Shown: in pieces, positions 1-21,100 of the stretch
Numbering within the stretch: the stretch's first letter is position 1
How the letters are laid out: each line of letters opens with the position of its first letter
Program-made: the position numbers and the translations under genes
Assembly (NCBI RefSeq): GCF_012910705.2
Contig: NZ_WTVG02000040.1
Coordinates: 868,001 to 932,000, forward strand
Direction: 5' to 3'
DNA from: Aromatoleum anaerobium
Lineage (GTDB): Bacteria; Pseudomonadota; Gammaproteobacteria; Burkholderiales; Rhodocyclaceae
Length of the DNA: 64,000 nucleotides
Notes under the pieces: model-generated
What the model saw: the letters and a program-made list of their open reading frames with translations, nothing else
Databases searched by the model: none
Told to the model about the DNA's origin: nothing

Positions 1-112
1 ACGTAAGCCGCTCTTCACGGCATACGAGCGCCTCGCGGTCGGGAGCGCACTCGGCCGCGTGCGCGAGCATATGCACGACGCTCGGGTAGACGGTTGGCAT
101 TTTCGACATCAT
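1..112 (-). CDS. Acyl-CoA ligase (AMP-forming), N-terminal part, cut by window edge
   Basis: The reverse strand shows a strong AGGAGG box (bases 113-120) directly followed by two consecutive ATG codons (112 and 109), then about 37 codons open to the window edge. The second ATG has the better spacing to the box. The peptide contains HAAECAPDREALVCREERLT, the usual opening of AMP-dependent acyl-CoA synthetases (a 'PDREAL...RLT' segment before the first strand). It lies downstream of the flavoprotein gene at 285-2234 on the same strand and would be the next gene of the same operon, giving the locus two CoA ligases. Only the N-terminus is visible, so the substrate cannot be guessed. Confidence 0.65.
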   Translation of the reverse strand, partial: MMSKMPTVYPSVVHMLAHAAECAPDREALVCREERLT

Positions 113-284
113 CTCCTCCTTGTTGCCGCAGCCCGGCTCCCGTGCGCGCGACGCAGTGCGCGGGGCGCGGTATCGCCGCGGCGGGACCGCTCATCCTGAC
201 GGCCTCGCCGCATCGCTGCCAGCCATGCGCTCCAGCCGCTATCCGTGTAATACGGGTTTCGGTCCTGAGCGCGGCGGCCATGGA

Positions 285-2234
285 TCAAAGTCGGCATCCC
301 GCCCGGTACCCGGCATGCATCGCGTCATAGACCTTCGCGGTGCGCACGCAGTCTCCGACCTCGTACACGGCCATGCCCCCGCCCTCGCGCAACGCCGCGG
401 CGAGGCCGTCACGATTCGGGCCGTACCCGAGCGCGGTGACAACCGAATCTGCTTCAAACTGGCGCGTCCTGCCGTTACGGTCGGCCGCGGTCACCCGTCC
501 GCCCGAAATTTCCGTGGCCTGCAGGCCGGTGATGATCTCGATGCCGGCTCGGGCGAGCATCTCGCCGTACGAGATCTTGTCGGTGATCGTGCAATCACGC
601 GCCATCAGCTCGTCGCGCCGGTGCAGGATCGTCACCTCGCGGCCGGCTTGCTGCAAGTAGAGGGCGACTTCCACCGCGGTCTCACCGCCGCCGAGCACCA
701 GCACGCGCCGGCCGGGCGTCGCGCCGCCGTTGAAGACATCGATCGCATCCATGACGCGCGGACCGTCAATCCCGGGGATTGGCGGTGCCGAAGCCTGCCC
801 CCCGATCGCGATGACCGCCGCGTCGAAGCGGCCGACGATGTCCGCGGCTTCGGCGCGGCGCCGCACAACGTCGACGCCGAGCTTGTCCATCTGCGTCGCC
901 AGGTAGTCGTTGAGGAAGCGCAGATCCGACTTGAACTCCGCGACCGAACCTTCCTGCAGCACGCCGCCGAGGCTGCGTTTCTCGAACAGCGTCACGCGGT
1001 GGCCGCGCAGCGCGGCGACGCGGGCCGCCTCCATGCCGGCGACGCCGCCGCCGACGACCGCGACCTTCTTCGCTTGCCGAGCCGGCGTCACCTGCAGGTC
1101 GCCCTCGCGCCCGATCTCCGGGTTGACCGAACAGCCGACGGCGCGGAAGCGGAAAAAGGTCCGGTCAAGACAGCCGTCGTTGCAGCGGATGCACGGCCGG
1201 ATATCCTCCTGCCGGCCTTCGCGGGCCTTGTTGGACCATTGCGGGTCCGCCCACAGCGGCCGGCCGAGCGAGATGAAGTCGCCCTTGCCATCGGCCAGAA
1301 TCTCTTCGGCGAAGTCCGGCAACGTGATCGAGCCCGACGCGATGACCGGGATGCCGACCGCCTTGCGCACCGCCTCCGCCGCCCACACGTTGTGGAGGCG
1401 TGGCACGGACATCGGGCTGACCTGGTGGATCATTTGATGATGGTCGCCGCCCGATACGTGGATCGCGTCGATGCCGAGCGATTCGGCGATCCTGGCGACC
1501 TCGATCGTCTCGTCGATGCCGAAGCCGTCCGGCTCGTAGTCGGTGCCGCTCAGGCGCAGCGTCAGCGGGAATGCGTGGCCGATCTTCGAGCGCGCACTCT
1601 CGATGATCTCGACAAGCAGGCGCGTGCGGTTCTCGAACGAGCCGCCGTAACGATCGGTGCGCTTGTTCGTGTGCGGCGACAGGAAGTTGGTGATCAGATA
1701 GCCGTGGGCACCGTGGATCTCGACGAGGTCGAAGCCGGCCGCAACCGCGCGCCGCGCTGCGTCGCCGAACGCCTCGACGATCTGCGCGATCTCGTCGATC
1801 GACAGCTGCTCCGGGATCGCCTTGTCGCCGCTGCGCGCCTTCAGTGCGAGCCACGGCACGGCGGACGCGGCCTTGATCGGCGGCGTGCCGAGAAACTTCT
1901 GCCGCCCGCAATGTTCGATCTGGATGCCGGCGCGCGCACCCTGCTCCTTGATCGTCTCGGCGAGCAGCGTCAGGCCGGAAATATGCTCGTCGCTGCTGAT
2001 GCCGAGCTGGCAGTGCGCCGACTTGCTCGCGATGTCATCGACGTAGGCATACTCGGCGATGATCAGCCCGGTCCCGCCTTTCGCGACTTCGCGGTAGTGG
2101 CGGATCAGCCGCTCCGACACCGAGCCATCAATGTTGCTCATGCCGGTCGACGTCGGTGCCTTGATGATGCGATTGGGCAGTTCGAGGTTGCCGATCCGCC
2201 CCGGGGCAAACAGCTTCGGATATCTCATGTCCAT
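285..2234 (-). CDS. Old-yellow-enzyme / 2,4-dienoyl-CoA reductase family flavoprotein
   Basis: A 649-aa protein with the three-part layout of FadH-type 2,4-dienoyl-CoA reductase and related NADH:flavin oxidoreductases. An FMN TIM barrel spans about residues 5-335 (LFAPGRIGNLELPNRI at the start, HGAHGYL at 174-180). Four cysteines (C348, C351, C355, C368) are spaced to bind a 4Fe-4S cluster. FAD- and NAD(P)-binding Rossmann segments follow (VAVVGGGVAGMEAA near 391, VLVLGGGETA further on). It probably reduces an activated C=C bond of an unsaturated or enone CoA ester in the cytoplasm. An AGGAGG box precedes the start; it is only 3 nt from the first ATG and 9 nt from the ATG at 2228, so the protein may begin two residues later. 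It lies in the minus-strand catabolic operon, 79 bp after the acyl-CoA dehydrogenase gene. Family assignment is secure, substrate unknown. Confidence 0.85.
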   Translation of the reverse strand: MDMRYPKLFAPGRIGNLELPNRIIKAPTSTGMSNIDGSVSERLIRHYREVAKGGTGLIIAEYAYVDDIASKSAHCQLGISSDEHISGLTLLAETIKEQGARAGIQIEHCGRQKFLGTPPIKAASAVPWLALKARSGDKAIPEQLSIDEIAQIVEAFGDAARRAVAAGFDLVEIHGAHGYLITNFLSPHTNKRTDRYGGSFENRTRLLVEIIESARSKIGHAFPLTLRLSGTDYEPDGFGIDETIEVARIAESLGIDAIHVSGGDHHQMIHQVSPMSVPRLHNVWAAEAVRKAVGIPVIASGSITLPDFAEEILADGKGDFISLGRPLWADPQWSNKAREGRQEDIRPCIRCNDGCLDRTFFRFRAVGCSVNPEIGREGDLQVTPARQAKKVAVVGGGVAGMEAARVAALRGHRVTLFEKRSLGGVLQEGSVAEFKSDLRFLNDYLATQMDKLGVDVVRRRAEAADIVGRFDAAVIAIGGQASAPPIPGIDGPRVMDAIDVFNGGATPGRRVLVLGGGETAVEVALYLQQAGREVTILHRRDELMARDCTITDKISYGEMLARAGIEIITGLQATEISGGRVTAADRNGRTRQFEADSVVTALGYGPNRDGLAAALREGGGMAVYEVGDCVRTAKVYDAMHAGYRAGCRL

Positions 2235-2313
2235 GAACCTCCTCGTGTTGACGCGTCTGTTCTGTTAACCACCTTGCCTCGGCGTGCGGCCGTCCGACGC
2301 CGACCGCGGTTCG

Positions 2314-4083
2314 TTACCTGCCGCCCGTGAGCGTCTCGGCGTCGAGCGTATCGAGGCTCGCCGCACCGAGCAGCGCGCGACGCTGCAGCGTGAGCGCTTC
2401 AGGCATCAGGTATTCGGCGTAGAAACGGGCGAGCGCACGCTTCACCTCATGCAGCGGCGAATCTCCCGACGCTGCGGCCGCCATCCGCAGCCACATCCAG
2501 CCCCCGGCCACGAGCCCGACGAGCGCGAGATACGCACTCGCGCCGGCCTCAGCGTCGCGGCTCACATTCGCGACTCGCTGGGCGATTGCATCGGTGCAGG
2601 CGTCGAGCCGCAAAAGGCCGTCGACGACCGCGTCACGGATCTCCCGCAATTCCGCGCAGCCCGAGTTGCGATCGAGGTCGGCGCGGATGCGGGCGGCAAA
2701 AAGGCTGTAACGCTTGCCGTTGTCCTGCGGCAGCTTGCGCATCACGAGATCGAGCGCCTGGATGCCGTTCGCGCCCTCGTAGATCGACATTACGCGGCTG
2801 TCGCGCACGTATTGCTCGACACCGGCGTCGGCGACGTAGCCGTGGCCACCGAACACCTGCACCGCGAGGTTCGCGACTTCGAAGCCGGCGTCCGACCCGC
2901 ACGCCTTGCACACCGGCAGCAGCCATTCGGCGAGGGCGAGCGCATCCGCCCGGGGTGCCTCTGGTCCGGCCTGCGCGAGGTCGAGCTGCAACGCGGCTTC
3001 GAGCACCAGCGCGCGCATCGCCTCGGTGCGCGCGCGCATCAGGTACAGCATCCTTCGCACGTCCGCGTGCTCGACGATCGCCACCGCGGGCGCGTCCGCC
3101 CGACCGCCCTGTGGCCGCTCCAGCGCGTAGCGCAGCGCCTTCGCAGTCGCCGCGCCTGCGACGGCGACACCCTGCATCGCGACTTCGAGGCGCATTGTGT
3201 TCACCATCGTGAACATCGCCTTCAGGCCGGCATTCTCCTGCCCGACCAGGTAAGCCTGTGCACCGTCGAAGTTCACGACACAGGTCGGCGAGGCTTTGAG
3301 GCCCATCTTGTGCTCGACGCGCGTCACCGTGACGCCGTTGCTGGCGCCCGGCGTGCCGTTCGCCTGAAGCGCACGGGCCGGGACGAGGAACAGGCTCAGC
3401 CCGCGCGTTCCCGGCGGCGAACCGGGGATGCGGGCAAGCACCATATGGATGATCTGCTCGGTGAAATCCTGGTCACCGTACGTAATGAAGATCTTCGTGC
3501 CGGTCACGCAGTAGCCGCCGTCGGACTGCCGCTCGGCGCGCGTCGCGATGCGGCCAACGTCGGAGCCCGCCTGCGCTTCGGAGATGCAGATCGTCGCGCC
3601 CCACCTGCCGGTCGCAAGCGACGGAGCGACGACATCGACGAGCCCCTTCGGCGCATGCGCGACCAGCAGCCGCGTCGCCGCGCGCTCCATCAGCGGCAGC
3701 ATCCCGAATGCGACGCAGGCGCCGTTGACCATTTCTGCGCACGCCGCCTGCAGCGTCACCGGCAGCGCCTGGCCGCCGAATTCCTGGGGCATGTCGAGAC
3801 CGGGCCAGCCGGCCTCGACGTAGTGCCAGTACGCGTCGCGAAAGCCGGGTGGAGTCACGACACGTCCGTTCTCGAGGCGACTGCCCTGCTCGTCGCCGGT
3901 TGCGTTCAACGGCGCAAGGACGCCTGCGGCGAAGCGCGCGGACTCGGCGAGCACGACGTCGGCGAGCTCGACATCGGCGTGCTCGAACGCAGGCAGGGAG
4001 AACAACCGGCCGTAGTCCAGCACGTCGTCGAGGACGAAGCGCAGGTCGTTCAGCGGGGGGAGGTATGAATCATTCATGGCCAC
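2314..4083 (-). CDS. Acyl-CoA dehydrogenase, long DmdC-like type
   Basis: A 589-aa acyl-CoA dehydrogenase, about 200 residues longer than the classical 380-aa enzymes and matching the DmdC (methylmercaptopropionyl-CoA dehydrogenase)-like class with an extra C-terminal domain. It shows the N-terminal helical part, the middle beta-domain flavin motif (ATICISEAQAGSDVG, then TGTKIFITYGDQD) and the C-terminal four-helix part with FGGHGYVADAGVEQYVRD and the catalytic-loop-like YEGANGIQALDLV. It should introduce an alpha,beta double bond into a CoA ester and pass electrons to ETF. The 5'-most start is a GTG at 4083, 7 nt after GGAG (4091-4094); an in-frame ATG at 4077 is the alternative. The gap to the upstream ligase contains a pentanucleotide repeat. 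Confidence 0.87.
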   Translation of the reverse strand: MAMNDSYLPPLNDLRFVLDDVLDYGRLFSLPAFEHADVELADVVLAESARFAAGVLAPLNATGDEQGSRLENGRVVTPPGFRDAYWHYVEAGWPGLDMPQEFGGQALPVTLQAACAEMVNGACVAFGMLPLMERAATRLLVAHAPKGLVDVVAPSLATGRWGATICISEAQAGSDVGRIATRAERQSDGGYCVTGTKIFITYGDQDFTEQIIHMVLARIPGSPPGTRGLSLFLVPARALQANGTPGASNGVTVTRVEHKMGLKASPTCVVNFDGAQAYLVGQENAGLKAMFTMVNTMRLEVAMQGVAVAGAATAKALRYALERPQGGRADAPAVAIVEHADVRRMLYLMRARTEAMRALVLEAALQLDLAQAGPEAPRADALALAEWLLPVCKACGSDAGFEVANLAVQVFGGHGYVADAGVEQYVRDSRVMSIYEGANGIQALDLVMRKLPQDNGKRYSLFAARIRADLDRNSGCAELREIRDAVVDGLLRLDACTDAIAQRVANVSRDAEAGASAYLALVGLVAGGWMWLRMAAAASGDSPLHEVKRALARFYAEYLMPEALTLQRRALLGAASLDTLDAETLTGGR

Positions 4084-4120
4084 TACCAGTCTCCGGAAAG
4101 ATGAATGCAGCGCGGGCGCG

Positions 4121-4185
4121 TCACGTCACGTCACGTCACGTCACGTCACGTCACGTCACGTCACGCCACGCCACGCCACGCCACG
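4121..4185. repeat. Pentanucleotide tandem repeat (9x TCACG + 4x CCACG)
   Basis: Thirteen uninterrupted 5-bp units, nine TCACG (4121-4165) followed by four CCACG (4166-4185) on the plus strand. On the coding (minus) strand they read CGTGG and CGTGA and cover the last codons and stop of the CoA ligase gene (stop at 4161-4163) and part of the spacer before the acyl-CoA dehydrogenase gene. Five is not a multiple of three, so slippage would change the ligase tail and the spacer length. Confidence 0.95.
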
Positions 4186-5726
4186 CCGGCCCCGCTCCCG
4201 AGAAGGCGCCGCAGTTCCCGCTTGAGGATTTTTCCGCTGGGATTCTTCGGCAATTCATCGAGGAACACGACCGCGCGCGGCTTCTTGTAACTTGCCAAGG
4301 ATCGCCGGCAGTGCTCGATCAACTCGCCCGTCGACGCGGACATTCCCGGCCGCAGCACGACCGCCGCCGTGACGACCTCGCCCCATTCGTCGTCGGGCAG
4401 GCCGACGACCGCGGCTTCGAGGATCGCCGGGTGGTCGTACAGCACGCTCTCGACCTCTTTCGTATAGATATTGACGCCGCCGCTGACGACCATGTCCTTG
4501 AGTCGGTCAACCAGGAACAGATAGCGCTCATCGTCGAGATACCCGAGATCGCCAGTGTGAAACCAGCCGTCGCGGAGCGCCTTCGCGGTTTCGTCCGGCA
4601 TGCCCCAGTAGCCCGAGATCACCGAGTGGCTGCGTACCAGCACCTCGCCGACTTCGCCGGTGGCGACGTCGCGGCCGTCAGCACCAACGACGCGCACCTC
4701 GGCGCCGACTGCCTCGCGCCCCGCCGAGGCGAGACGCTTTTGCTGTTGCGCGCTGCCGTCCGGCACGTGGTCGGCGGCGACGAGGAAGGTCGCTTCGAGC
4801 GTCTCGGTCAGGCCATAGCCTTGGGTAAATCCGCAGCGCAGACGATCAAGCGCGCGCTGCAGCACGGCGGGCGGCATCGGCCCACCGCCGTAGAACACCA
4901 GCCGCAGTGACGAAAGGGGCGACACCGCGAGATCGGCGTGATTGACCGCCGCATTGATCATCGTCGGCACGAGCAGCGCCACCGTCACCCGATGCCGCCG
5001 CACGGCCGTGAGCCACGCCGCCGGCTCGAAACGTTCGATGATCACCTGCGTGCAGCCAAGCATCATGTACGTGACGCCCATGAATACGGCGCCCATGTGA
5101 TAGAGCGGGGTGGACACGAGGTTGATGTCGTCGCCCCGGCTGCCATCCGCGACGAACTGGTTGAACGCGTTGGCCTCGAGGTTGCGATGCGACACCATTG
5201 CCCCTTTGGGCAGGCCGGTCGTGCCGCTGGTGAAGAACACCGCGAAGGTGTCGTCCTCCCCTGCGGGGGAATCGAGCGGCCCGGCGGCAGCGTCCTGCAC
5301 CGCCTGCTCGTAGCGCTTCGCGCCGGCCAGCGTCCCCCCGCCGACCATCCAGGGCTGCTGCAGGCCCGGAAGCAGCGTCTCGAGTTCACGCGCCGTATCG
5401 ACGAACTCAGCGCCGACGACCAGCAGCGACGGCCGCGCGTGGCCGAGGATCTGCGCGAGTTCCGCGGGAGTGAGCCGGTAATTGAGCGGCAGCGCGACGA
5501 GCCCCGCCCGTGCGATACCGAGATAGAGCTCGATGAATTCCGGGCAGTTGGAAAGCAGGATTGCGACGAACTCGCCGCGCGCGAAACCGCAGGCGCGCAA
5601 TGCATTGGCCACCCGGTCCACCCGTCCGTCCAGTTCCAGCCAAGTCTGGCTTCGCTCACCGAAGACGATCGCCGGCTTGTGCGGAAAGCGCAGCGCGTTG
5701 CGCCGCGCGATCAGATCGAGAGTCAT
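4161..5726 (-). CDS. AMP-dependent acyl-CoA ligase
   Basis: A 521-aa ANL-superfamily ligase that would activate a carboxylic acid to its CoA thioester with ATP. The P-loop TSGTTGLPKG (about 166-175), the region around GYGLTE, the hinge DGWFHTGDLGYLD and the C-terminal catalytic lysine in NPSGKILK (about residue 499) are all present, so it should be active. The ATG at 5726 is chosen over longer in-frame reading because a GGAGGG box precedes it and it follows the upstream stop by only 2 bp, implying translational coupling. The last seven residues (VAWRGVA) are encoded by the pentanucleotide repeat at 4121-4185 and are not part of the family fold. Substrate unknown. Confidence 0.87.
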   Translation of the reverse strand: MTLDLIARRNALRFPHKPAIVFGERSQTWLELDGRVDRVANALRACGFARGEFVAILLSNCPEFIELYLGIARAGLVALPLNYRLTPAELAQILGHARPSLLVVGAEFVDTARELETLLPGLQQPWMVGGGTLAGAKRYEQAVQDAAAGPLDSPAGEDDTFAVFFTSGTTGLPKGAMVSHRNLEANAFNQFVADGSRGDDINLVSTPLYHMGAVFMGVTYMMLGCTQVIIERFEPAAWLTAVRRHRVTVALLVPTMINAAVNHADLAVSPLSSLRLVFYGGGPMPPAVLQRALDRLRCGFTQGYGLTETLEATFLVAADHVPDGSAQQQKRLASAGREAVGAEVRVVGADGRDVATGEVGEVLVRSHSVISGYWGMPDETAKALRDGWFHTGDLGYLDDERYLFLVDRLKDMVVSGGVNIYTKEVESVLYDHPAILEAAVVGLPDDEWGEVVTAAVVLRPGMSASTGELIEHCRRSLASYKKPRAVVFLDELPKNPSGKILKRELRRLLGSGAGVAWRGVA

Positions 5727-5728
5727 CG

Positions 5729-6406
5729 TCACGCCCTCCGTGCGGGGCGGGGCTGCTTGTAGATCCGGGTGACGCAGGGCTCGTCGACCGGCTGCCCGTC
5801 GTCGTCGAACTGCCTGCCGAAGCTCGACTCGAAGACATCCCAACCCCATTCGCGCGGCAGGATGTCCATCCACAACGGCGTATGGACGCAATAGGCGGAC
5901 AGCGTGCGGCCGAACGTTCGCGGCGCCGGTTGCTTCAGGACCGCGATGTTGATCGGGTGGCGCGCCGAACCCTCGTTCTTGCCGTCACGCATCAGCATTC
6001 CGCCGCTCGCGCAAAAGTGCAGGATGAAGGTCGTCTTCTCGTCGTCCTCGACGACGGTGAAGCGGTGTCCGTGCGCGCGCAGGAACTGCGCGTACATCTC
6101 CACGAGCAACGCCGTCGAGCCGCTCTCCCTCGCCTGCATCAGGATCGGCTTCCATACCTGCTCGCCGACGAAGCGCCAAACGTCCTCGACGGCGTCCTCG
6201 CCGAGACGGTCGCGGATGTAGGTACAGAAGAGTCCCGACATCTCGACGTAGAGGTCGTGCAGCGGCCGCCACTCGTCCTGGATCGCGCGGCACTGCTTCA
6301 GGGCCTCTTCGCGGTCGCCGTTCCGGATCGCGGCTTGGCACTTGTCGAGCGCAGTCACCGCGAGCTCGTGCCGCTCGATGGCAACCTCGGATGCCGGCCG
6401 GCTCAT
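5729..6406 (-). CDS. Small protein resembling L-2-amino-thiazoline-4-carboxylate hydrolase family
   Basis: A 225-aa protein without signal peptide or membrane segment. The start (ATG, 6404-6406) overlaps the stop of the B12-subunit gene (ATGA) and its stop lies 2 bp before the ligase start, so it is an integral operon member. The sequence (FILHFCASGGMLMRDG, then YCVHTPLWMDILPREWGW, then PCVTRIYK near the C-terminus) is reminiscent of the ATC-hydrolase family (PF14196-type), judged from memory of the general pattern and not from an alignment. Two separated cysteine regions and several His/Trp residues could form a catalytic or metal site. It could instead be an accessory subunit of the carboxylase-like HyuAB or of the mutase. 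Function unproven. Confidence 0.5.
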   Translation of the reverse strand: MSRPASEVAIERHELAVTALDKCQAAIRNGDREEALKQCRAIQDEWRPLHDLYVEMSGLFCTYIRDRLGEDAVEDVWRFVGEQVWKPILMQARESGSTALLVEMYAQFLRAHGHRFTVVEDDEKTTFILHFCASGGMLMRDGKNEGSARHPINIAVLKQPAPRTFGRTLSAYCVHTPLWMDILPREWGWDVFESSFGRQFDDDGQPVDEPCVTRIYKQPRPARRA

Positions 6407-6804
6407 GCCGCCTCCCGCGCGATCAGGCGATCCACGCGGTGCGCGACCTCGTCCGACAGCAAGCCGGGCAACAAGACGTCGGCGACGCCCATGTCCTTCA
6501 GCGCCTGCACATCGTCCTCCGGTATGACGCCGCCGCAGAACACCGGGACGCGCAGGCCTTCCCGCTGCATCTGTTCGATCAGGCGGCGCATCTGCGTCAT
6601 GTGCTGGCCGGACAGGAAGCTGATGCCGATCGCGTCGACGTCCTCTTCGAGCGCGGTCTTGACGACGCGGTCCGCGAAATTGTGCAGACCCAGATACACC
6701 ACTTCGTGGCCGGCGTTGCGCAGGATGTTGGCGACGGTGACGATACCGGTGTCGTGGCAATCCAGGCCCATCTTCGCCAGCAGAATGCGTTTGTGCATGC
6801 TCAT
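6403..6804 (-). CDS. B12-binding small subunit of an acyl-CoA mutase
   Basis: A 133-aa stand-alone cobalamin-binding domain, like the small subunits of isobutyryl-CoA and 2-hydroxyisobutyryl-CoA mutases. The signature DxHxxG is present as DCHDTG (about residues 15-20), with the later SxL (SFLSG) and GG (FCGGVIP) motifs, so it should bind adenosylcobalamin base-off with His as lower ligand. The usual text is GxDGHDRG; Cys in place of Gly before the His and Thr in place of Arg are unusual. An AGGAGGG box lies 10 nt before the first ATG (6804); a second ATG at 6798 is possible. It sits 16 bp after the large-subunit gene and overlaps the next gene by 4 bp. No MeaB-type chaperone gene is visible in the window. 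Confidence 0.88.
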   Translation of the reverse strand: MSMHKRILLAKMGLDCHDTGIVTVANILRNAGHEVVYLGLHNFADRVVKTALEEDVDAIGISFLSGQHMTQMRRLIEQMQREGLRVPVFCGGVIPEDDVQALKDMGVADVLLPGLLSDEVAHRVDRLIAREAA

Positions 6805-6820
6805 GATGAATCAGCCCTCC

Positions 6821-13665: not shown

Positions 13666-13704
13666 CGATTGAAAGTCAATCGATCATTTTAATTATTTTG
13701 ATCG
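13666..13704. promoter_or_regulatory. Two overlapping inverted repeats, candidate operator for the MarR-like regulator
   Basis: CGATTGAAAGTCAATCG (13,666-13,682) is a perfect 7-bp inverted repeat with a 3-bp centre. It shares its last two bases with a second repeat, CGATCA-N12-TGATCG (13,681-13,704). A further half-site with the same text, TCGATTGAA, occurs at 13,828-13,836, shortly before the regulator gene. The surrounding 60 bp are much more AT-rich than the flanking genes and lie between the divergent thiolase operon and regulator. This is what a shared operator/promoter region looks like; binding itself is inferred. Confidence 0.5.
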
Positions 13705-13862
13705 GTTTTTCATTAAACACGATCGAGGGTGGGATGGCATCGCGGCCGGTCATGCGGGCGCGCCGAGGACCGGGTGCGCGACGGAGGGGACGTTGACAAC
13801 GCCGAACGGCAGCAGATACAGTGAAAATCGATTGAAATTACGTTCACAGCAAGCGAGCCATT

Positions 13863-14465
13863 TTGTCTACAGTCATCGCCACCACGCACGTCGAGGAAAC
13901 GGAATTGGATCAGAGCTACTACAAGGGCTGGCATCTGGGGGGCACGCACCACGATGCGATGACCACAGAGTTTGAGTGGGCAATACTGCGTTTCGAGCAG
14001 GCGTTCCAGCGCTTCATGCTGCAGGTCGCGAGCATGTGCGGGCTCGGTGAGCTCAGTTCCGCGGAGCTCGTGCTTCTTCATGTCATTCGCATGCAGGAGG
14101 GCCCCAAGACGGCTGCCGTGCTCGCGCGCCAGCTCAACCTGGACGGGATCACGAACGTCCAGTACAGCCTGCGCAAGCTGCTCAACTTCGGCCTCGTCGA
14201 CAAGATCAAGGGCGGAAACAGCAAGATCTGGACGTACGCCGTCACCGAACGGGCCGCAGCGATGCTCGACGACTACACGCGGATCCGCCGCGAAATGTTG
14301 ACCGACCAGACGAAGAACATCGAGCACATCGACAAGAAGCTATACGAGACCGCGAAGCTGCTCAGCATGCTCACTGGCACCTACGACGAAGCGAGCCGAA
14401 TCTCGGCGACTTATTGCCGCGTCACGCCTCCGGCGGACGGCGAGAAGGGCCGGACCTCGGCATGA
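13863..14465 (+). CDS. MarR-like winged-helix transcriptional regulator
   Basis: A 200-aa predicted winged-helix protein. The central part (LSSAELVLLHVIRMQEGP, then VLARQLNLDGITNVQYSLRKL, then GLVDKIKGGNSKIWTYAVTE) has the helix-turn-helix and wing pattern of the MarR-like group, with a long C-terminal helix for dimerisation. It is divergent from the thiolase operon and upstream of the dehydrogenase/hydratase gene, so it probably controls both arms, with a CoA thioester or aromatic acid as likely effector. The start is uncertain: the longest frame begins with TTG at 13,863 without a good ribosome-binding site, and an ATG near residue 33 (MTTEFEWAI) is possible. Confidence 0.7.
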   Translation: MSTVIATTHVEETELDQSYYKGWHLGGTHHDAMTTEFEWAILRFEQAFQRFMLQVASMCGLGELSSAELVLLHVIRMQEGPKTAAVLARQLNLDGITNVQYSLRKLLNFGLVDKIKGGNSKIWTYAVTERAAAMLDDYTRIRREMLTDQTKNIEHIDKKLYETAKLLSMLTGTYDEASRISATYCRVTPPADGEKGRTSA

Positions 14466-14600
14466 TCCGCCGCCGGGGCTGCGCGGCCCCGCGCTCCTGC
14501 AGCGAGTCATGCAGGAAACCGAATTCGACCGGTAGCGGACAAGAGACGGTCTGCGCCGGGGCAGTCGACCGCCTCACAAAAAACCAAGGAGCACCGCGCC

Positions 14601-16616
14601 ATGTCCAGGACCTACTCGAATCCCCTGCTGTATCGTCCTGCCCGCCCGGCGCCGCGCCACGTCGCCGTCATAGGCGCCGGGACGATCGGCCCGGACATCG
14701 GCTATTACCTCAAGAGCGCCCTGCCGCATATCCGGCTCACGCTCGTCGACGTCGCGCAGCCCGCGCTCGACCGCGCGCTGCAGCGCTGCGACGACTACGC
14801 CCGCAAAGCGGTTGCGCGCGGCAAGATGAGCGAGGCCGAAGCCGCAGCGGTGAACGCCGGCATCGTCGGAACGCTCGACTATCACGCACTCGCCGACTGC
14901 GACTGGGTGATCGAGGCGGCGACCGAGAACCTGTCGCTTAAGCAACGTATTTTTGCTGACGTCGAGCGCATCGTCTCGCCGCACGCGGTCATCACGTCAA
15001 ACACAAGTTCGCTGCCGGCGCAACGGATCTTCGCCGAGCTCGAGCGCCCGGACCGCGCGACGATCACGCACTTCTTCGCGCCGGCGTGGCGCAATCCGGC
15101 CGTCGAGGTGATCGCGTGGGAGAAGCTCGATCCCGACGTCCTCGCATATCTGAGGTGGATTTTCGCCGTCACCGGCAAGGTCCCGCTGCTGACATCCGAC
15201 GTCGTCTGCTTCATGCTCGACCGCGTCTTCGACAATTGGTGCAACGAGGCGGCGCTGCTGCTCGACCGCGCGACCGCGGCCGAGGTCGACAGCGCGGTCG
15301 CAGCGTACGTCCACGCGGGTCCGTTCTTCGTGCTGAACCTCGCTCGCGGCAATCCGATCATCACCGAGACGAATACGCTACAGGCGGAGGAGGAAGGCGA
15401 GCACTACCGGCCGGCGCCGATCTTCCGCTCAGTCGACACCTGGCTCACAGTCGCACCGGGCAAGCAGGTGGAGATGGGTCCGGAGACTGCCGCGGCGACG
15501 CGGGATCGCCTGCTCGGCGTGCTGTTTTCGCAGTCCGTCGACATCCTCGATCGCGGCATCGGGAGCGCCGCCGATCTCGATCTCGGCTGCAAGCTCGCAC
15601 TCGGCTTCAAGCACGGGCCGCTTGAACTGATGCGGGATCTCGGCGAGCCGAAATCGCACCGCATCTTCGAACGTTTCGCCGCCGAACGCCCCGGCATGCC
15701 GACGCCGGCGCGCCCGCTCGCCGACTACCAGCAGTTCTGGCGGCACCTGCTCGTCGACGATGTCGATGGCGTCAAAGTCATCACGCTGCGCCGCCCCGAG
15801 GCGCTCAACGCGCTGCACGACGAAATGACGGACGAAATCCTCGCGGTGATCCGTCTGTACGAGGCCGATCCGGCGGTGCGAGGTTTCGTCATCGTCGGTT
15901 ACGGCACGAAAGCGTTCTGCGCCGGGGGCGACATCGGCCGCTTCCCGTCGATGCTCGGCGATCGCGAAGCCTCGGCACAATACGCGCGCGACTGCTCACG
16001 ACTGCTGGTGCATCTGGACGCAATGGAAAAACCGGTTGTCGCCGCACTGAACGGCATCGCGATCGGTGGCGGCTTCGAGCTCGCGATGCGCTGCCACGGC
16101 ATCGTCGCGCTTCGCCCGGCCTGGATGCAACTGCCCGAGATCACGCTCGGCATCGTGCCGGGTATAGGCGCGATGGTCGTACCGTATCGCCGCTGGCCGG
16201 ACGCTGCCGCGGTGTTCCACGGCATGTTGCGCTGCGCCGACCGCCTTGAGGCGCCGCGCGCGTTCGAACTCGGGATTGTGGACCGGCTGGCCGAGGATTA
16301 CCCCGCCTTGATCCGGGCGGCCGTGGAACGGGTCGACACGCTCGCGGGGCGACACACGGGCGTTCAGGACGGAAAAGTGCGGATCGCAGCGTTCGAACCG
16401 ATCGAACCGAAAGCCGCGAACGGGCAACTGCTGAGCGCTGAGGTGATCGGAATCATCGAAACCGCGGTCGCGGAAGCGGCGGCGGCCGCGACCTTTTCCG
16501 AAGCGCTCGAAGTCGGCTACCGCGCGTGGGGGGATAGCGCCTGCACCGCGGCGGCGCGCGAAGGCATCACCGCATTCCAGCAGAGGCGCAAGCCGGACTT
16601 CACGAAGACGTCCTGA
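14601..16616 (+). CDS. Fused 3-hydroxyacyl-CoA dehydrogenase / enoyl-CoA hydratase
   Basis: A 671-aa bifunctional protein with the order reversed relative to FadB: dehydrogenase first, crotonase second. Residues about 20-380 have the NAD fold (VAVIGAGTIGPDIG) and the catalytic ITHFFAPAWRNPAVEVI segment (His followed by Glu). Residues about 385-671 are a crotonase domain with the oxyanion-hole text AFCAGGDIGRFPS and both candidate catalytic glutamates (IGGGFELAMR and LPEITLGIVPGIG). It should hydrate an enoyl-CoA and oxidise the resulting 3-hydroxyacyl-CoA, feeding the thiolase of the divergent operon. AAGGAG precedes the ATG. It is the first gene of the plus-strand arm after the regulator. 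Confidence 0.87.
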   Translation: MSRTYSNPLLYRPARPAPRHVAVIGAGTIGPDIGYYLKSALPHIRLTLVDVAQPALDRALQRCDDYARKAVARGKMSEAEAAAVNAGIVGTLDYHALADCDWVIEAATENLSLKQRIFADVERIVSPHAVITSNTSSLPAQRIFAELERPDRATITHFFAPAWRNPAVEVIAWEKLDPDVLAYLRWIFAVTGKVPLLTSDVVCFMLDRVFDNWCNEAALLLDRATAAEVDSAVAAYVHAGPFFVLNLARGNPIITETNTLQAEEEGEHYRPAPIFRSVDTWLTVAPGKQVEMGPETAAATRDRLLGVLFSQSVDILDRGIGSAADLDLGCKLALGFKHGPLELMRDLGEPKSHRIFERFAAERPGMPTPARPLADYQQFWRHLLVDDVDGVKVITLRRPEALNALHDEMTDEILAVIRLYEADPAVRGFVIVGYGTKAFCAGGDIGRFPSMLGDREASAQYARDCSRLLVHLDAMEKPVVAALNGIAIGGGFELAMRCHGIVALRPAWMQLPEITLGIVPGIGAMVVPYRRWPDAAAVFHGMLRCADRLEAPRAFELGIVDRLAEDYPALIRAAVERVDTLAGRHTGVQDGKVRIAAFEPIEPKAANGQLLSAEVIGIIETAVAEAAAAATFSEALEVGYRAWGDSACTAAAREGITAFQQRRKPDFTKTS

Positions 16617-16860
16617 GCCGCACACTGCCGCCTTTTCGCCCAAGCCGAAATTCATCCTGGCGGTCGACGGCCGAATCCGCGTGTCCGCCGCCGTTCGGCA
16701 TTCCCGCAGGTCGGCGCCCTCGCCTCCCGGTGAAACATGCAGCACCGGGACAGGCGCTGCGGCCATCGGATAGTCGTGCGCGACCCCGCTCCCTAGTCTG
16801 GGGCAACACGTGATAGGGCTGCGAAGCCATGCCACGTCCCGGCGACCCAGCAAGGAGTGG

Positions 16861-19599
16861 ATGAAGATCATGAGCAGCACGCACAAGGTTTCGACTTACT
16901 GTTATCAGTGCGTCAACGGTCCCGACATGCTCACGGTCGAAGTGACCGACGGCATCGCGACGACCGTGGCCCCGAACTTCGCCGCGAAGGGCTATCACCC
17001 GGCCGACGGCAAGGTCTGCGTGAAGCCTTACGGCCTCGTGCAGAAGATCTACAACCCGAACCGGGTGCTGAAGCCGCTGAAGCGCACGAACCCGAAGAAG
17101 GGACGCAACGAAGATCCGGGCTGGGTCGAGATCGAGTGGGAGGAGGCGCTCAACACGATCGCGCAGAAGCTCAATGCGATCCGCGCGACGAGCCTCATCG
17201 ACGAGCAGGGCTACCCCCGCGTTGCCTTCACGACTGGCGGCGCGGCGACGCCTTACTTCTACATGGGCACGTTCGCGTCCTTCCTCGCCGCGTGGGGGCC
17301 GGTCGACCAGAGCCTCGGCGCGGGCGGCACGGTCAAGTGCTACCACACCGAGCATGTCTACGGCGAGCTGTGGCATCGCGCCTTCACCGTCTGCCCGGAC
17401 ACGCCGCGTTGCGAATACATCGTCTCGTTCGGCAACAACATCGACGCCTCGGGCGGCGTCACGAGCGTGCGCCGCCACGCGGACGCCCGCGCGCGCGGCA
17501 TCAAGCGCATCCAGATCGAACCGCATCTGTCGATCACCGGGGCATCAGCGAGTGAATGGATCCCGATCCGCCCGAAAACCGACCCGGCGTTTCTCTACGC
17601 GATGTTGCACGTGCTGCTGCACGAGCGCCCGCTCACCGATCTCGACGTGCCTTTCCTGAAGGCGCGCACCGGTTCGCCGTACCTTATCGGACCAAACGGC
17701 TTCTTCCTGCGCGACCCGGCGTCGAAGAAGCCGCTGATGTGGGACGCTGCCACCGGCCGCGCGCTGCCGTTCGACACCCCGGGCATCGATCCGGCGCTCG
17801 TCGGCAGCTTCACGGTCAGCGGCATGGAGGTCGGCGCCGACGGCAAGACGTGGGAGCACGACGCGATCGAAGCGACGACCGCGTTCGAGGTCACGCGCAG
17901 ACTCGTCGCGGCGCACACGCCGGAATGGGCGGCGCCCGTCTGCGACGTCGCCGCGTACAGGATCCGCCGCGTCGCGAATGATTTCATCGCGCATGCGCGC
18001 ATCGGCGAGACGATCGAGTTCGAGGGCCGAACGCTGCCGTTCCGCCCGGTCGCGGTGATGCTCGGCAAGGGCGTCAACAACGGCTGGGGCGCGTACGAAT
18101 GCGTCTGGGCGCGCACGATGCTGATGGTGCTCGTCGGCGGCCTCGAAGTGCCCGGCGGGCTGCTCGGCAGCACGGTGCATATCTCCGGCATGGACTTCGA
18201 CCGCATGGGCTCGGTCGCGCCGCACCCGGACGGCTTCCTCGACTACCCGTTCAACCCGACCGACAAGGAGCACTGGGCCGCGCAGCCGCAGGTGCGCCAC
18301 GGCCACACGACGTTGATTCCGATCATCGGCGGCGGCCTCACCAGCCAGTTGATGGGCTCGACGGTGCTCTCCTGGATGCGCCTGCAGGGCCGCGCCGCCG
18401 ACAGCTGGGGCCAGCCAAAGCCGCCCGACGTGTGGTTCGTCTATCGCTGCAACCCGAACATCTCGTTCTCCGAAACCGACCGGATTGGCGAGACGATGGC
18501 GACCTTCCCGTTCACGGTCGCGTTCTCCTATACGCAGGACGAGACGAACCATTTCGCCGACCTCGTGCTGCCCGAGGCGATCGACCTCGAAAGCACGCAG
18601 CTGATCCGCATCGGCGGCACGCACTACTTCGAGCAGTTCTGGGACACGCAAGGCTGGGTGCTGCGCCAGCCCGTCGTCCCCCCGCGCGGCGAGGCGAAGG
18701 ACTTCACGTGGATCGCGACCGAGCTGGCAAAGCGCACCGGGCTGCTGGAAGCCTACAACGCGATGATCAACTTCGGCGCCGCCGGTCTGCCGCTGAAGAC
18801 CGATGCGTACGACTTTTCGCTCGACGTCACGCGCGCGCACTCGGTGGACGAGACCTGGGACGCGATCTGCCGTGCCGCGAGCGCCGACGTCACCGGCGGC
18901 ACCGCGAGCGACGGCCTCGCGTATTTCAAGGAGAAAGGCTTCCGCGTCAAGCCGTTCCCGAAGATCAACTGGTATCTGTACCCGCGCATGGAGGATCTCG
19001 GGCTGCGCTTCGAACTGCCCTACCAGGAACGGATACTCCGCATCGGCCAGGAGCTGTCCGCACGGCTGCACGAGCAGGGCGTCACGTGGTGGGACCGGCA
19101 ACTGCACGAATACGAGCCGCTGCCCACATGGAAGGACCTCAACGAGCTGTGGGCGTCGGCGTACGAACGCGCTTACGGCATCAAGGCCAGCGACTACCCG
19201 TTCTGGCTGCTGACCGCGCGCAGCATGCAGTACGCGTGGGGCGGCAATGTCAGCCTGCAGATGATCCGCGAGGTCGCGGCGAACATCGCCGGTCACGACG
19301 GCATCATGATCAATGCGCAGGTCGCCGAGCAGCTCGGCATCGAGCAGGGCGACCGCATCGAGGTCACGTCGCCGATTGGCGTGACGAGCGGCCGCGCGCT
19401 GCTGCGTCAGGGCGTGCGTCCCGACACGATCGTCATGGTCGGCCAGTTCGGTCACTGGAAAACCCCGTACGCCAAGGACCTCGACATGCCGAGCTTGAAC
19501 AACCTCGTGCCGATGAACATGGATTTGGTGGACGGAACCGGCTCGGCGGTCGACGCGGTGCTCGTCAATATCCGCAAAGTCGGGAGAAAATCCAAATGA
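16861..19599 (+). CDS. Molybdopterin oxidoreductase catalytic subunit, PadB-like
   Basis: A 912-aa DMSO-reductase-superfamily protein. With the following FeS and membrane subunits it has the layout and sizes of phenylacetyl-CoA dehydrogenase PadBCD, which oxidises an acyl-CoA alpha-methylene to an alpha-keto acid. No Tat signal is present, so it is cytoplasmic. The N-terminal cluster motif is incomplete: C14 and C17 (CYQC) and C53 (GKVCVKPYG) are present, but the third cysteine of the usual CxxCxxxC is replaced by Pro21, next to Asp22. C160 (GGTVKCYH) is a candidate Mo ligand. AAGGAG lies 3 nt before the ATG at 16,861; the ATG at 16,870 is an alternative. The stop overlaps the next start. The specific PadB name is by context and remembered pattern only. 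Confidence 0.78.
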   Translation: MKIMSSTHKVSTYCYQCVNGPDMLTVEVTDGIATTVAPNFAAKGYHPADGKVCVKPYGLVQKIYNPNRVLKPLKRTNPKKGRNEDPGWVEIEWEEALNTIAQKLNAIRATSLIDEQGYPRVAFTTGGAATPYFYMGTFASFLAAWGPVDQSLGAGGTVKCYHTEHVYGELWHRAFTVCPDTPRCEYIVSFGNNIDASGGVTSVRRHADARARGIKRIQIEPHLSITGASASEWIPIRPKTDPAFLYAMLHVLLHERPLTDLDVPFLKARTGSPYLIGPNGFFLRDPASKKPLMWDAATGRALPFDTPGIDPALVGSFTVSGMEVGADGKTWEHDAIEATTAFEVTRRLVAAHTPEWAAPVCDVAAYRIRRVANDFIAHARIGETIEFEGRTLPFRPVAVMLGKGVNNGWGAYECVWARTMLMVLVGGLEVPGGLLGSTVHISGMDFDRMGSVAPHPDGFLDYPFNPTDKEHWAAQPQVRHGHTTLIPIIGGGLTSQLMGSTVLSWMRLQGRAADSWGQPKPPDVWFVYRCNPNISFSETDRIGETMATFPFTVAFSYTQDETNHFADLVLPEAIDLESTQLIRIGGTHYFEQFWDTQGWVLRQPVVPPRGEAKDFTWIATELAKRTGLLEAYNAMINFGAAGLPLKTDAYDFSLDVTRAHSVDETWDAICRAASADVTGGTASDGLAYFKEKGFRVKPFPKINWYLYPRMEDLGLRFELPYQERILRIGQELSARLHEQGVTWWDRQLHEYEPLPTWKDLNELWASAYERAYGIKASDYPFWLLTARSMQYAWGGNVSLQMIREVAANIAGHDGIMINAQVAEQLGIEQGDRIEVTSPIGVTSGRALLRQGVRPDTIVMVGQFGHWKTPYAKDLDMPSLNNLVPMNMDLVDGTGSAVDAVLVNIRKVGRKSK

Positions 19600-20243
19600 C
19601 CCGCTATGTAATGGTCGCCGATCTGAACCGCTGCGTCGGCTGCCAGACCTGCACCGCGTCGTGCAAGCACACGAACGCGACGCCGCCGGGCGTGCAGTGG
19701 CGCAAGGTTCTCGACGTCGAGATGGGCGAATACCCGAACGTGGAACGCCTGTTCATGCCGGTGGGGTGCCAGCACTGCTCCGATCCCCCGTGCATGGAGG
19801 TCTGTCCGAGCACCGCCACCGGCCAGCGCAAAGACGGCATCGTCACCATCGACTACGACCTCTGCATCGGTTGCTCGTACTGCGCGGTCGCCTGCCCGTA
19901 CCAGGCGCGTTACAAGGTCGAGGAGGCCCGCTTCGCGTATTCGGACGGCCCGACCGAAAACGAGGCGCTTCGCTTCGACGAGCGCCGCATCGGTGTCGCG
20001 CAGAAATGCACGTTCTGCTCCGACCGCGTCGATGCCGGGCTCGAGCGCGGGCTGACCCCTGGCATCGATCCCGACGCGACACCCGCGTGCGCAAACGCCT
20101 GCATCGCGAACGCGCTGACCTTCGGCGATCTCGAGGACCGGGAGAGCAACGTGTCGAAGCTGCTGACCGAAAACACGTGGTTCCGGATGCACGAGCACTT
20201 GGGCACCGACCCCGGCTTCTACTACCTGTGGGAAGAGAAATGA
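19596..20243 (+). CDS. Four-cluster ferredoxin subunit of the molybdenum enzyme, PadC/DmsB-like
   Basis: A 215-aa electron-transfer subunit with four cysteine groups for four 4Fe-4S clusters: CVGCQTCTASC, CQHCSDPPCMEVCP, CIGCSYCAVACP, and CTFC plus a later pair in ACANAC. This is the DmsB/NrfC/PadC pattern. It relays electrons from the Mo site to the membrane subunit. The start overlaps the catalytic-subunit stop by 4 bp (ATGA) with GGGAG upstream, and its own stop overlaps the next start, so the three subunits are translationally coupled. Confidence 0.9.
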   Translation: MTRYVMVADLNRCVGCQTCTASCKHTNATPPGVQWRKVLDVEMGEYPNVERLFMPVGCQHCSDPPCMEVCPSTATGQRKDGIVTIDYDLCIGCSYCAVACPYQARYKVEEARFAYSDGPTENEALRFDERRIGVAQKCTFCSDRVDAGLERGLTPGIDPDATPACANACIANALTFGDLEDRESNVSKLLTENTWFRMHEHLGTDPGFYYLWEEK

Positions 20244-21100
20244 AACCGACCAAGTTCTCCCGCTTCGGAACCTCGCATCAGGCGATCTGGGACTGGCGTG
20301 CCGCCGGCAACTTCATCTGCGGCGGCGCCGGTTCATCCCTGCTCGCGGTGAGCACCTTCGCGGCGTTCCCCGGCGTCGCCGATGGCCGCCTCCTGCTGCT
20401 CGCGGTGCTGCTGATCGGCGCCGGTCTGGCATTCGTCTGGACCGAGATCGGCCGCCCGTGGCGCGCGTTCAACGTGCTGTTCCATCCGCAAACGTCGTGG
20501 ATGACGCGCGAAGCATACGTTGCCGCGCTGATCGTCGCGCTGCTCGCAGCCGGCGCCGCGACCGGGGTCGCGTTCCTGTCGCACATCGCCAGCCTCGCGG
20601 CCCTGCTGTTTCTCTACTGCCAGGGGCGCATCCTGAAGGCGGCGCGCGGCATTCCCACGTGGCGCGAGCCAGCGATCGTCCCGTTGATCGTTGCGACCGG
20701 GCTTGTCGAGGGTCTGTCGCTGCTCGTGCTGATCGTCACGATGCAGGGAGCAGCGGTTCCCGCGATGTTCGCCGCGTTGATATTGCTCGTCGCACTGCGC
20801 GCCGCCGCCTGGCTGCGCTACCGCAGCCGGATGAATGCATCCGACATGCCGCTGTCGACGCGCCGCGTGCTGCAGTCGTCGCACCTCGCCGTGCTGGGAG
20901 TCGGCACGGCTGTGCCGCTCGTCGCCGCCGCGCTCGCACTCGCGGTGCCGATGGCAGCACTGGCCGGCGCGCTTGCCGCGCTCGCAGCTGCAGTCGCGGG
21001 GTGGCATTTCAAACTGCTGCTGATCACACGTGCGGCGCAGGTACAGGGTTATGCGCTTGGCAACAAGCTGCGACGCGGCCATCCGTTCGCAGCAAGGTAG
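20240..21100 (+). CDS. Membrane anchor subunit, DmsC/NrfD/PadD-like
   Basis: A 286-aa, strongly hydrophobic protein with about eight predicted membrane helices and a short cytoplasmic N-terminus (KFSRFGTSHQAIWDWRAAGN). It fits the quinone-reducing anchor (DmsC-like) of membrane molybdenum enzymes. It completes the three-gene unit and overlaps the FeS-subunit gene by 4 bp. Sequence conservation in these anchors is low, so the assignment rests on hydropathy, length and gene order. The catabolic locus ends here; the following 160 bp show no gene. Confidence 0.82.
   Translation: MKPTKFSRFGTSHQAIWDWRAAGNFICGGAGSSLLAVSTFAAFPGVADGRLLLLAVLLIGAGLAFVWTEIGRPWRAFNVLFHPQTSWMTREAYVAALIVALLAAGAATGVAFLSHIASLAALLFLYCQGRILKAARGIPTWREPAIVPLIVATGLVEGLSLLVLIVTMQGAAVPAMFAALILLVALRAAAWLRYRSRMNASDMPLSTRRVLQSSHLAVLGVGTAVPLVAAALALAVPMAALAGALAALAAAVAGWHFKLLLITRAAQVQGYALGNKLRRGHPFAAR

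What the first reader, a model, noticed from the sequence alone, without database searches (positions are those of the whole stretch)
1..21100. Candidate undescribed CoA-dependent catabolic pathway combining HyuAB, a B12 mutase and a PadBCD-like enzyme
Two CoA ligases, a carboxylase/hydantoinase-like HyuAB pair, a B12 acyl-CoA mutase, two oxidising dehydrogenases, a dienoyl-CoA reductase-like flavoprotein, a hydratase/dehydrogenase fusion, a thiolase and a three-subunit Mo enzyme are arranged around one regulator. I know no described pathway with exactly this set. A working model is CoA activation, ATP-dependent carboxylation or ring opening, carbon-skeleton rearrangement and thiolysis of a branched or cyclic substrate. 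The gene content is seen; the pathway is inference.
Basis: partly seen in the sequence, partly recalled or inferred. Interest (0 to 1): 0.78.

Follow-up and report, generated by a model that had tools for sequence, protein, structure and literature searches.

The report
Sister pathway to anaerobic auxin breakdown
The gene cluster looks like a remodelled copy of a known oxygen-free pathway that breaks down the plant hormone auxin, probably retuned for a related indole compound without an acid group, such as the manure odour skatole.

Summary
The gene set is real; the second CoA ligase lies almost wholly upstream of the window. It is not chance: the whole cluster recurs in a same-genus genome (G006), and its core in a Glaciimonas MAG. 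Nor is it without precedent. Thiolase, HADH-hydratase fusion, HyuAB and B12 mutase are paralogues of the anaerobic indoleacetate (iaa) pathway of Aromatoleum aromaticum, whose markers are in 12 of 17 genus genomes. The window's genome has both clusters; in G006 they abut; in the MAG they share one contig and one HADH-hydratase gene.

The new cluster lacks what iaa uses for its dicarboxylic intermediate: no IaaL CoA transferase was found, its acyl-CoA dehydrogenase has YEG instead of IaaF's decarboxylating GGG, and its mutase has Gln/Thr/Asn plus a 4-residue loop in place of Tyr/Arg/His.

Best reading: ATP-dependent opening of a 3-alkyl-oxindole without a side-chain carboxylate, CoA ligation, B12 rearrangement of 2-(2-aminophenyl)propionyl-CoA, then beta-oxidation to anthraniloyl-CoA and acetyl-CoA, which fits skatole via 3-methyloxindole. 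Ring opening is supported; carboxylation is not. The substrate, first oxidation, and roles of the flavoprotein, second ligase and a 225-aa protein are inference.

The parts
1..112 (-). first codons of CoA ligase 2 (AMP-binding, 518 aa; rest upstream at contig C2:866556-868000)
   Evidence: translation across the window edge; Pfam AMP-binding; NCBIfam; 84% to G006, 72% to Glaciimonas MAG
285..2234 (-). OYE-type FMN/FAD flavoprotein (BaiCD / bilirubin-reductase-like, below every NCBIfam cut-off)
   Evidence: 90% in G006, 83% in MAG
2314..4083 (-). acyl-CoA dehydrogenase with canonical YEG motif (start GTG 4083 or ATG 4077)
   Evidence: motif comparison with IaaF
4161..5726 (-). CoA ligase 1 (37-38% to IaaB)
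   Evidence: 84% G006, 77% MAG
5729..6406 (-). 225-aa protein of unknown function, conserved in 3 of 3 clusters
   Evidence: no Pfam match above its cut-off, no NCBIfam match
6403..6804 (-). B12-binding small subunit of the mutase (DxHxxG present: DCHDTG)
   Evidence: motif
6821..8467 (-). mutase large subunit with variant active site Q74 / T-loop / N234 in place of Tyr / Arg / His
8464..10215 (-). HyuB (Hydantoinase_B, 583 aa; 51% to IaaE)
10212..12320 (-). HyuA (Hydantoinase_A, 702 aa; 55% to IaaC; DxGGTxTD phosphate-binding motif present)
12371..13576 (-). IaaA-type thiolase (75% to IaaA)
13863..14465 (+). winged-helix (HTH_27) regulator, divergent from the catabolic operon
   Evidence: 84% G006, 77% MAG
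14601..16616 (+). 3-hydroxyacyl-CoA dehydrogenase / enoyl-CoA hydratase fusion (73% to the iaa-locus homologue, taken here as IaaP)
16870..19599 (+). molybdopterin catalytic subunit, DMSO-reductase family, PadB paralogue (56-59%)
19596..20243 (+). 4Fe-4S electron-transfer subunit (63% to the FeS gene beside the PadB-like gene of G005)
20240..21100 (+). NrfD/DmsC-like membrane anchor, suggesting electrons go to quinone

Best explanation
The cluster encodes a sister of the anaerobic indoleacetate (iaa) pathway, retuned for a 3-alkyl indole/oxindole that carries no side-chain carboxylate; skatole (3-methylindole) via 3-methyloxindole is the best fit. Proposed order: (1) oxidation to the oxindole by the quinone-linked Mo enzyme [inferred; an OYE reduction of an exocyclic methylene, 3-methyleneoxindole to 3-methyloxindole, may belong here: speculative]; (2) ATP-dependent hydrolysis of the gamma-lactam by HyuAB to 2-(2-aminophenyl)propionate [family shown, substrate inferred]; (3) CoA ligation by ligase 1; (4) B12-dependent rearrangement of 2-(2-aminophenyl)propionyl-CoA to 3-(2-aminophenyl)propionyl-CoA by the variant mutase [inferred]; (5) alpha,beta-dehydrogenation by the YEG acyl-CoA dehydrogenase to 2-aminocinnamoyl-CoA; (6) hydration and oxidation by the HADH-ECH fusion; (7) thiolysis to anthraniloyl-CoA and acetyl-CoA. 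Steps 6-7 are the same as in iaa; steps 2-5 are the iaa logic without the second carboxylate, so that no CoA transferase and no decarboxylation are needed. Ligase 2 and the 225-aa protein have no assigned step.
For: Paralogy: thiolase 75%, HADH-ECH 73%, HyuA 55%, HyuB 51%, MutA 38%, MutB 39% to the iaa cluster; that cluster is iaa because G005 carries the published A. aromaticum EbN1 iaaF primer sequences (forward 0 mismatches, gene-specific part of the reverse 0) and the order thiolase-ligase-HyuA-HyuB-ACAD-MutB-MutA-FAD-2Fe2S-XDH-type Mo-CoA transferase III-binding protein (letters iaaA-M from PMC9613470 and PMC8360864). Shared end of the pathway: the window genome has two thiolases of this type, the other seven matches are 29% or less; the HADH-ECH type is found in 12 of 17 genus genomes, the same 12 that carry IaaC-type HyuA and an IaaH-type mutase; in G006 the new cluster's HADH-ECH is 88% to that genome's own iaa copy but 74% to the window's; the MAG has one such gene for both clusters. 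Linkage: in G006 iaaM ends at C13:125684 and the new cluster's AraC and mobB follow before ligase 2; in the MAG both lie on one 88-kb contig. No second carboxylate: IaaI, J, K, L, M give no hit (E<=1e-5) in the window plus 20 kb upstream; YEG in 3 of 3 new dehydrogenases, GGG in 7 of 7 IaaF (GGG described for IaaF in PMC8360864); mutase Q/T/N in 3 of 3 against Y/R/H in 7 of 7 IaaH. HyuAB is a hydrolase by the two-gene rule, and its nearest solved relatives are 5-oxoprolinase and N-methylhydantoinase, ahead of the carboxylases. Skatole is converted anaerobically to 3-methyloxindole (PMC6221969, passages). A hydrophobic-solute transport set (YCF48, MMPL, DUF1302, DUF1329) lies near the cluster in the window genome and in the MAG.
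Against: No substrate, expression or activity data exist. The Mo enzyme belongs to the DMSO-reductase family (PadB paralogue), not the xanthine-dehydrogenase family that iaa has (IaaIJK), so ring C2-hydroxylation by it would be unusual; in the MAG no orthologue sits in the cluster: the nearby Mo enzyme is 28-32% and groups with one found about 40 kb from iaa in G011, and the MAG's 56% homologue groups with the PadB-like genes, not with the window's. A second XDH-type enzyme in the MAG has no counterpart restricted to the two Aromatoleum-type carriers. The transport set is not beside the cluster in G006. OYE, ligase 2 and the 225-aa protein are not explained by the minimal scheme. The active-site Asn in place of His is unexplained chemically, and the mutase is 38% from IaaH, so its substrate could be something quite different. 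Only three carriers are known.
Confidence: 0.5

Rival explanations
1. Same iaa-derived backbone, but the substrate is another indole or oxindole acid (for example indole-3-propionate, ring-substituted indoleacetate, or another lactam of an aminophenyl acid), with the mutase acting on a dicarboxylic acyl-CoA.
For: HyuAB, thiolase and HADH-ECH are all iaa-type; two CoA ligases would suit activation of an acid and of the ring-opening product; PadB-type enzymes act on an arylacetyl-CoA (recalled).
Against: No CoA transferase in the cluster region, no decarboxylating GGG dehydrogenase, and no Arg at the carboxylate-binding position of the mutase; the iaa-type thiolase argues for acetyl-CoA rather than succinyl-CoA as product.
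Confidence: 0.25
2. A pathway for non-nitrogen aryl acids (2-arylpropionates such as 2-phenylpropionate, or arylacetates through PadBCD-type alpha-oxidation), in which HyuAB plays an unrelated part.
For: The Mo enzyme is a PadB paralogue (56-59%); a 2-arylpropionyl-CoA mutase step plus YEG dehydrogenase, hydratase, dehydrogenase and thiolase would also degrade 2-phenylpropionate to benzoyl-CoA; PadBCD-type genes are conserved in 16 of 17 genus genomes.
Against: HyuA is the sister of the oxindole lactamase IaaC with support 99/97 and is present in 3 of 3 clusters; the cluster abuts or neighbours iaa in 2 of 3 genomes.
Confidence: 0.12
3. One reading: HyuAB as an ATP-dependent carboxylase of a ketone followed by rearrangement and thiolysis of a branched or cyclic substrate.
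For: HyuAB shares the superfamily with acetone and acetophenone carboxylases.
Against: Only two genes, no gamma subunit, and Hyd-type subunit lengths (702 and 583 aa) against the published criteria; closer to hydrolases than to carboxylases among solved structures and sister to IaaC.
Confidence: 0.05

Closest known systems
Anaerobic indole-3-acetate pathway (iaaABCDEFGHIJKLMPQR), Aromatoleum aromaticum EbN1 / A. evansii
   Same: Thiolase, HADH-ECH fusion, CoA ligase, two-gene HyuAB lactamase, acyl-CoA dehydrogenase and two-subunit B12 mutase; very likely the same end (2-aminocinnamoyl-CoA to anthraniloyl-CoA and acetyl-CoA).
   Different: No IaaIJK Mo hydroxylase, IaaL transferase or IaaM binding protein; YEG instead of GGG dehydrogenase; mutase active site not Y/R/H; adds OYE flavoprotein, second ligase, 225-aa protein and, in two genomes, a PadBCD-like Mo enzyme; different gene order and regulator.
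2-Hydroxyisobutyryl-CoA mutase HcmAB (4r3u) and isobutyryl-CoA mutase
   Same: Best solved relative of the large subunit is HcmA (421 bits against 350 for human methylmalonyl-CoA mutase); two-subunit layout; no Arg for a second carboxylate.
   Different: Lacks the Ile/Asp positions aligned to HcmA and the Phe/Gln/His set of the ICM-like rows; His replaced by Asn and a 4-residue longer loop.
Phenylacetyl-CoA:acceptor oxidoreductase PadBCD
   Same: Three-subunit Mo / FeS / membrane-anchor enzyme; 56-59% identity in the Mo subunit, 63% in FeS, 40% in the anchor.
   Different: Separate paralogue of the PadB-like gene present in 16 of 17 genus genomes, including the window's own; sits in another operon; in the tree the window/G006 pair lies outside the PadB-like group.
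Acetophenone and acetone carboxylases (Apc, Acx)
   Same: Same HyuA/HyuB superfamily and ATP use.
   Different: No gamma, alpha-prime or epsilon subunit genes; falls with hydrolases.

Membership tests
iaa (anaerobic indoleacetate) pathway | IaaA-type thiolase and the iaa-type HADH-ECH fusion | tested here: met
   75% and 73% to the iaa copies; no other close thiolase in the genome
iaa (anaerobic indoleacetate) pathway | HyuAB gamma-lactamase IaaCE | tested here: inconclusive
   sister clade, 55%/51%; window clade and IaaC each monophyletic, 100/100; activity unknown
iaa (anaerobic indoleacetate) pathway | GGG-type decarboxylating dehydrogenase IaaF | tested here: not met
   YEG in 3 of 3 new clusters, GGG in 7 of 7 IaaF
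iaa (anaerobic indoleacetate) pathway | mutase IaaGH with Tyr/Arg/His | tested here: not met
   Q/T/N in 3 of 3; Y/R/H in 7 of 7 IaaH
iaa (anaerobic indoleacetate) pathway | phenylsuccinyl-CoA transferase IaaL and XDH-type hydroxylase IaaIJK | tested here: not met
   no hit at E<=1e-5 in the 64-kb window plus 20 kb upstream
Acetone/acetophenone carboxylase | third (or further) subunit gene beside the alpha/beta pair | tested here: not met
   HyuA and HyuB are flanked by thiolase and mutase genes; criterion from PMC5214803 section 7
Hydantoinase/oxoprolinase-type ATP-dependent amidohydrolase (HydAB) | two genes in the order A-B with Hyd-type lengths, DxGGTxTD motif | tested here: met
B12-dependent acyl-CoA mutase (MCM superfamily) | MM_CoA_mutase domain plus B12-binding subunit with DxHxxG | tested here: met
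2-Hydroxyisobutyryl-CoA mutase | HcmA-type Ile90 and Asp117 (roles recalled) | tested here: not met
   aligned residues are Gln74 and Thr101
Isobutyryl-CoA mutase | Phe/Gln/His active-site set (recalled) | tested here: not met
   61 of 89 aligned mutases have F/Q/H; the 3 of the window clade have Q/T/N
PadBCD | Mo, FeS and membrane-anchor subunits | tested here: met
PadBCD | oxidation of phenylacetyl-CoA | not testable with these tools
   no activity data; a separate PadB-like copy exists in the genome

The most novel reading that the evidence does not exclude
This is a pathway for complete anaerobic breakdown of skatole, a compound reported only to be hydroxylated to 3-methyloxindole without further mineralisation under methanogenic conditions, and it contains a new class of coenzyme-B12 mutase (2-arylpropionyl-CoA to 3-arylpropionyl-CoA) that works with an Asn where the other mutases compared mostly have the active-site His.
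Probability: 0.38. Interest if true: 0.8.

Novelty: new variant of a known kind. Interest (0 to 1): 0.62.

Why it matters
If right, it supplies candidate genes for anaerobic skatole (malodour, boar taint, manure) catabolism, for which the reviews whose passages I saw call the anaerobic mechanism a black box or the genes unknown (PMC6221969, PMC11434297), and a new B12 mutase substrate class with a naturally replaced active-site His. It also shows how a catabolic pathway is re-targeted: keep the lactamase, hydratase-dehydrogenase and thiolase, drop the CoA transferase and decarboxylating dehydrogenase, and change the mutase pocket. The prediction is sharp and cheap to test.

Tried and rejected
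Rejected: HyuAB as carboxylase (criteria). Rejected: the mutase as 2-hydroxyisobutyryl-CoA mutase or ordinary methylmalonyl-CoA mutase. Considered and left as unlikely: quinoline-type route (an OYE reducing 2-quinolone, then lactam opening), because it needs no mutase. Considered: the XDH-type hydroxylase at the end of the MAG contig as the missing first enzyme; its homologues in the genus are 40% or less and not restricted to the two carriers, so it was dropped. Fold prediction of the 225-aa protein from two sequences gave mean pLDDT 45.6, so no fold search was made; its only plasmid homologue (31.6%, Rhodococcus jostii RHA1 pRHL3) sits in an operon with an acyl-CoA dehydrogenase, 2-oxoacid dehydrogenase and CoA ligase genes, which does not fix a role. 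Neighbourhoods of other His-to-Asn mutases (L053, L065, L073, L109; 10 of their neighbouring ORFs scanned) show other gene contexts, none with HyuAB. The plasmid search for the Mo subunit gave one partial hit. Literature: searches; none of the listings showed genes for anaerobic skatole degradation, but the library lacks most subscription journals, including Ebenau-Jehle 2012 (not held) and Schuhle 2016, which I know only by recall and citation. Own error, corrected: the ligase-1 query in the scripts was in a wrong frame; one search repeats it correctly (84% G006, 77% MAG; no conclusion depended on the wrong values).

Full report
What is there. The window lies at G000:C2:868001-932000 of a 4.56-Mb genome in 40 contigs. 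Around a winged-helix regulator (13863-14465) stand a minus-strand operon, thiolase - hyuA - hyuB - mutA - mutB - 225-aa protein - ligase 1 - acyl-CoA dehydrogenase - OYE flavoprotein - ligase 2, and a plus-strand set, HADH-ECH fusion - Mo - FeS - NrfD. Ligase 2 is almost all upstream of the window, followed by mobB (Mo-cofactor synthesis), an AraC regulator, and DUF1329, DUF1302, MMPL and YCF48 genes, a combination I take, from recall, as an uptake system for hydrophobic compounds.

It recurs. In G006 of the same genus all these genes, from AraC to NrfD, are in the same order at 73-93% identity (ligase 1 at 84%); the transport genes are not there. A Glaciimonas MAG (contig JABBOY010000012, G820:C17) has regulator, thiolase, hyuAB, mutAB, 225-aa gene, ligase 1, dehydrogenase, OYE and ligase 2 in the same order (72-90%), then YCF48, MMPL, DUF1302, DUF1329 (44-76%) and the HADH-ECH gene.

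It is a paralogue of iaa. A tblastn of the window genes against loci chosen by HyuA similarity showed a second module, thiolase - ligase - HyuA - HyuB - ACAD - MutB - MutA, in 7 of 8 loci examined; the eighth runs off its contig after HyuA. In G011 it goes on with FAD, 2Fe-2S and xanthine-dehydrogenase-type Mo subunits, a family III CoA transferase and a periplasmic binding protein. That is the published order of the anaerobic indoleacetate genes (iaaABCDEFGHIJKLMPQR, PMC9613470 passages; PMC8360864 part 1 and passages). G005 contains the EbN1 iaaF primer sites of PMC8360864, and its longest contig is 4,296,230 bases, which I recall as the EbN1 chromosome; so the genus is taken as Aromatoleum (inference). 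IaaC-type HyuA (53% or more), IaaH-type mutase (37-38%) and the HADH-ECH fusion each occur in the same 12 of 17 genus genomes. The window genome has its iaa cluster on contig C35.

Clusters are linked and share an end. In G006 iaaM ends at C13:125684 and the new cluster's AraC, mobB and ligase 2 follow at once. In the MAG iaa (12.1-27.0 kb) and the new cluster (45.6-61.9 kb) are on one contig, with a single strong HADH-ECH match in the genome; the MAG may be incomplete. G006's new-cluster HADH-ECH is closer to its own iaa copy (88%) than to the window's (74%), and the thiolases of the two clusters (73-78%) are nearly as alike as IaaA proteins among themselves (78-98%). So I infer the same last intermediates: 2-aminocinnamoyl-CoA, 2-aminobenzoylacetyl-CoA, anthraniloyl-CoA plus acetyl-CoA.

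What was changed. (a) The dehydrogenase: IaaF has GGG, which the authors link to direct decarboxylation of benzylmalonyl-CoA (PMC8360864); 7 of 7 IaaF here have GGG and 3 of 3 new-cluster enzymes have YEG. (b) No IaaL, I, J, K or M homologue in the window or 20 kb upstream at E<=1e-5. (c) The mutase: of 89 aligned large subunits, 61 have Phe/Gln/His, 19 (including 7 of 7 IaaH) have Tyr/Arg/His, and the window clade has Gln/Thr/Asn with a loop 4 residues longer. The numbering and roles (Tyr89, Arg207, His244 of methylmalonyl-CoA mutase) are recalled; a search for a paper giving them found none, and the Arg column is only approximately aligned in rows with the longer loop. Six of the 79 other-phylum mutases also have Asn or Asp at the His position, in other gene contexts; in a quick tree the window clade groups with four of them (98), but on long branches. 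(d) HyuA is sister to IaaC with support 99/97, apart from eight other HyuA proteins (the tool warns of long branches among those eight). HyuAB fits the hydrolase and not the carboxylase criteria of PMC5214803.

Reading. A lactam opened to an aminophenyl acid, rearranged by a mutase that binds no second carboxylate, and oxidised without decarboxylation to the iaa intermediate: the simplest substrate is 3-methyloxindole, from skatole. PMC6221969 (passages) reports anaerobic 2-hydroxylation of 3-methylindole to 3-methyloxindole without further mineralisation under methanogenic conditions and calls the anaerobic indole mechanism a black box; PMC13101512 (passages) describes an aerobic monooxygenase route. 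Steps inferred: first oxidation, OYE role, all substrates.

Against. The first oxidation is the weakest link: the Mo enzyme is a PadB paralogue (56-59% to a gene found in 16 of 17 genus genomes), PadB-type enzymes act on an arylacetyl-CoA (recalled), and the MAG cluster has no orthologue beside it, only a 28-32% Mo enzyme that groups with one lying about 40 kb from iaa in G011. The OYE flavoprotein, second ligase and 225-aa protein (no usable fold) are conserved in 3 of 3 but unassigned. No experiment bears on the substrate. I hold the iaa-sister claim firmly (about 0.85), a mutase substrate without a second carboxylate at about 0.65, and skatole in particular at about 0.4.

Noticed in passing
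window 21601-25936: Just beyond the Mo enzyme: DUF4411 protein and HTH/M78-peptidase protein (toxin-antitoxin-like pair, minus strand), then an AAA/DUF4143 ATPase and a DUF4351 protein: a mobile-DNA-like flank.
   Followed up: no
L004:4316-16575 (upstream of the window): ABC transporter genes, a GGDEF/PAS protein and the YCF48-MMPL-DUF1302-DUF1329 set; the latter four recur beside the MAG cluster but not in G006.
   Followed up: partly
L053, L065, L073, L109, L082, L126: Mutases of other phyla with Asn or Asp in place of the usual active-site His, in unrelated gene contexts: possibly several unrecognised B12 mutase types.
   Followed up: partly
L163:13909-18083 and L166 (G011:C1:1401451-1403931): A DMSO-family Mo enzyme (about 30% to the window's) lies some 30-50 kb from iaa in several genus genomes and between iaa and the new cluster in the MAG, there with an FdhD gene.
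   Followed up: partly
L164:7490-17246 (Glaciimonas MAG): A second xanthine-dehydrogenase-type hydroxylase with an AraC gene (48% to the one upstream of the window), plus UbiD-like and cyclase-family genes, beyond the new cluster on the same contig.
   Followed up: partly
G000:C35:3-2474 and G000:C37:3-2474: Two PadB-like copies, each cut by a contig end, perhaps a repeated region that broke the assembly.
   Followed up: no
L167 (Rhodococcus jostii RHA1 pRHL3, 14947-15714): Distant homologue (31.6%) of the 225-aa protein, annotated hypothetical, inside an operon with acyl-CoA dehydrogenase, 2-oxoacid dehydrogenase and CoA ligase genes.
   Followed up: partly
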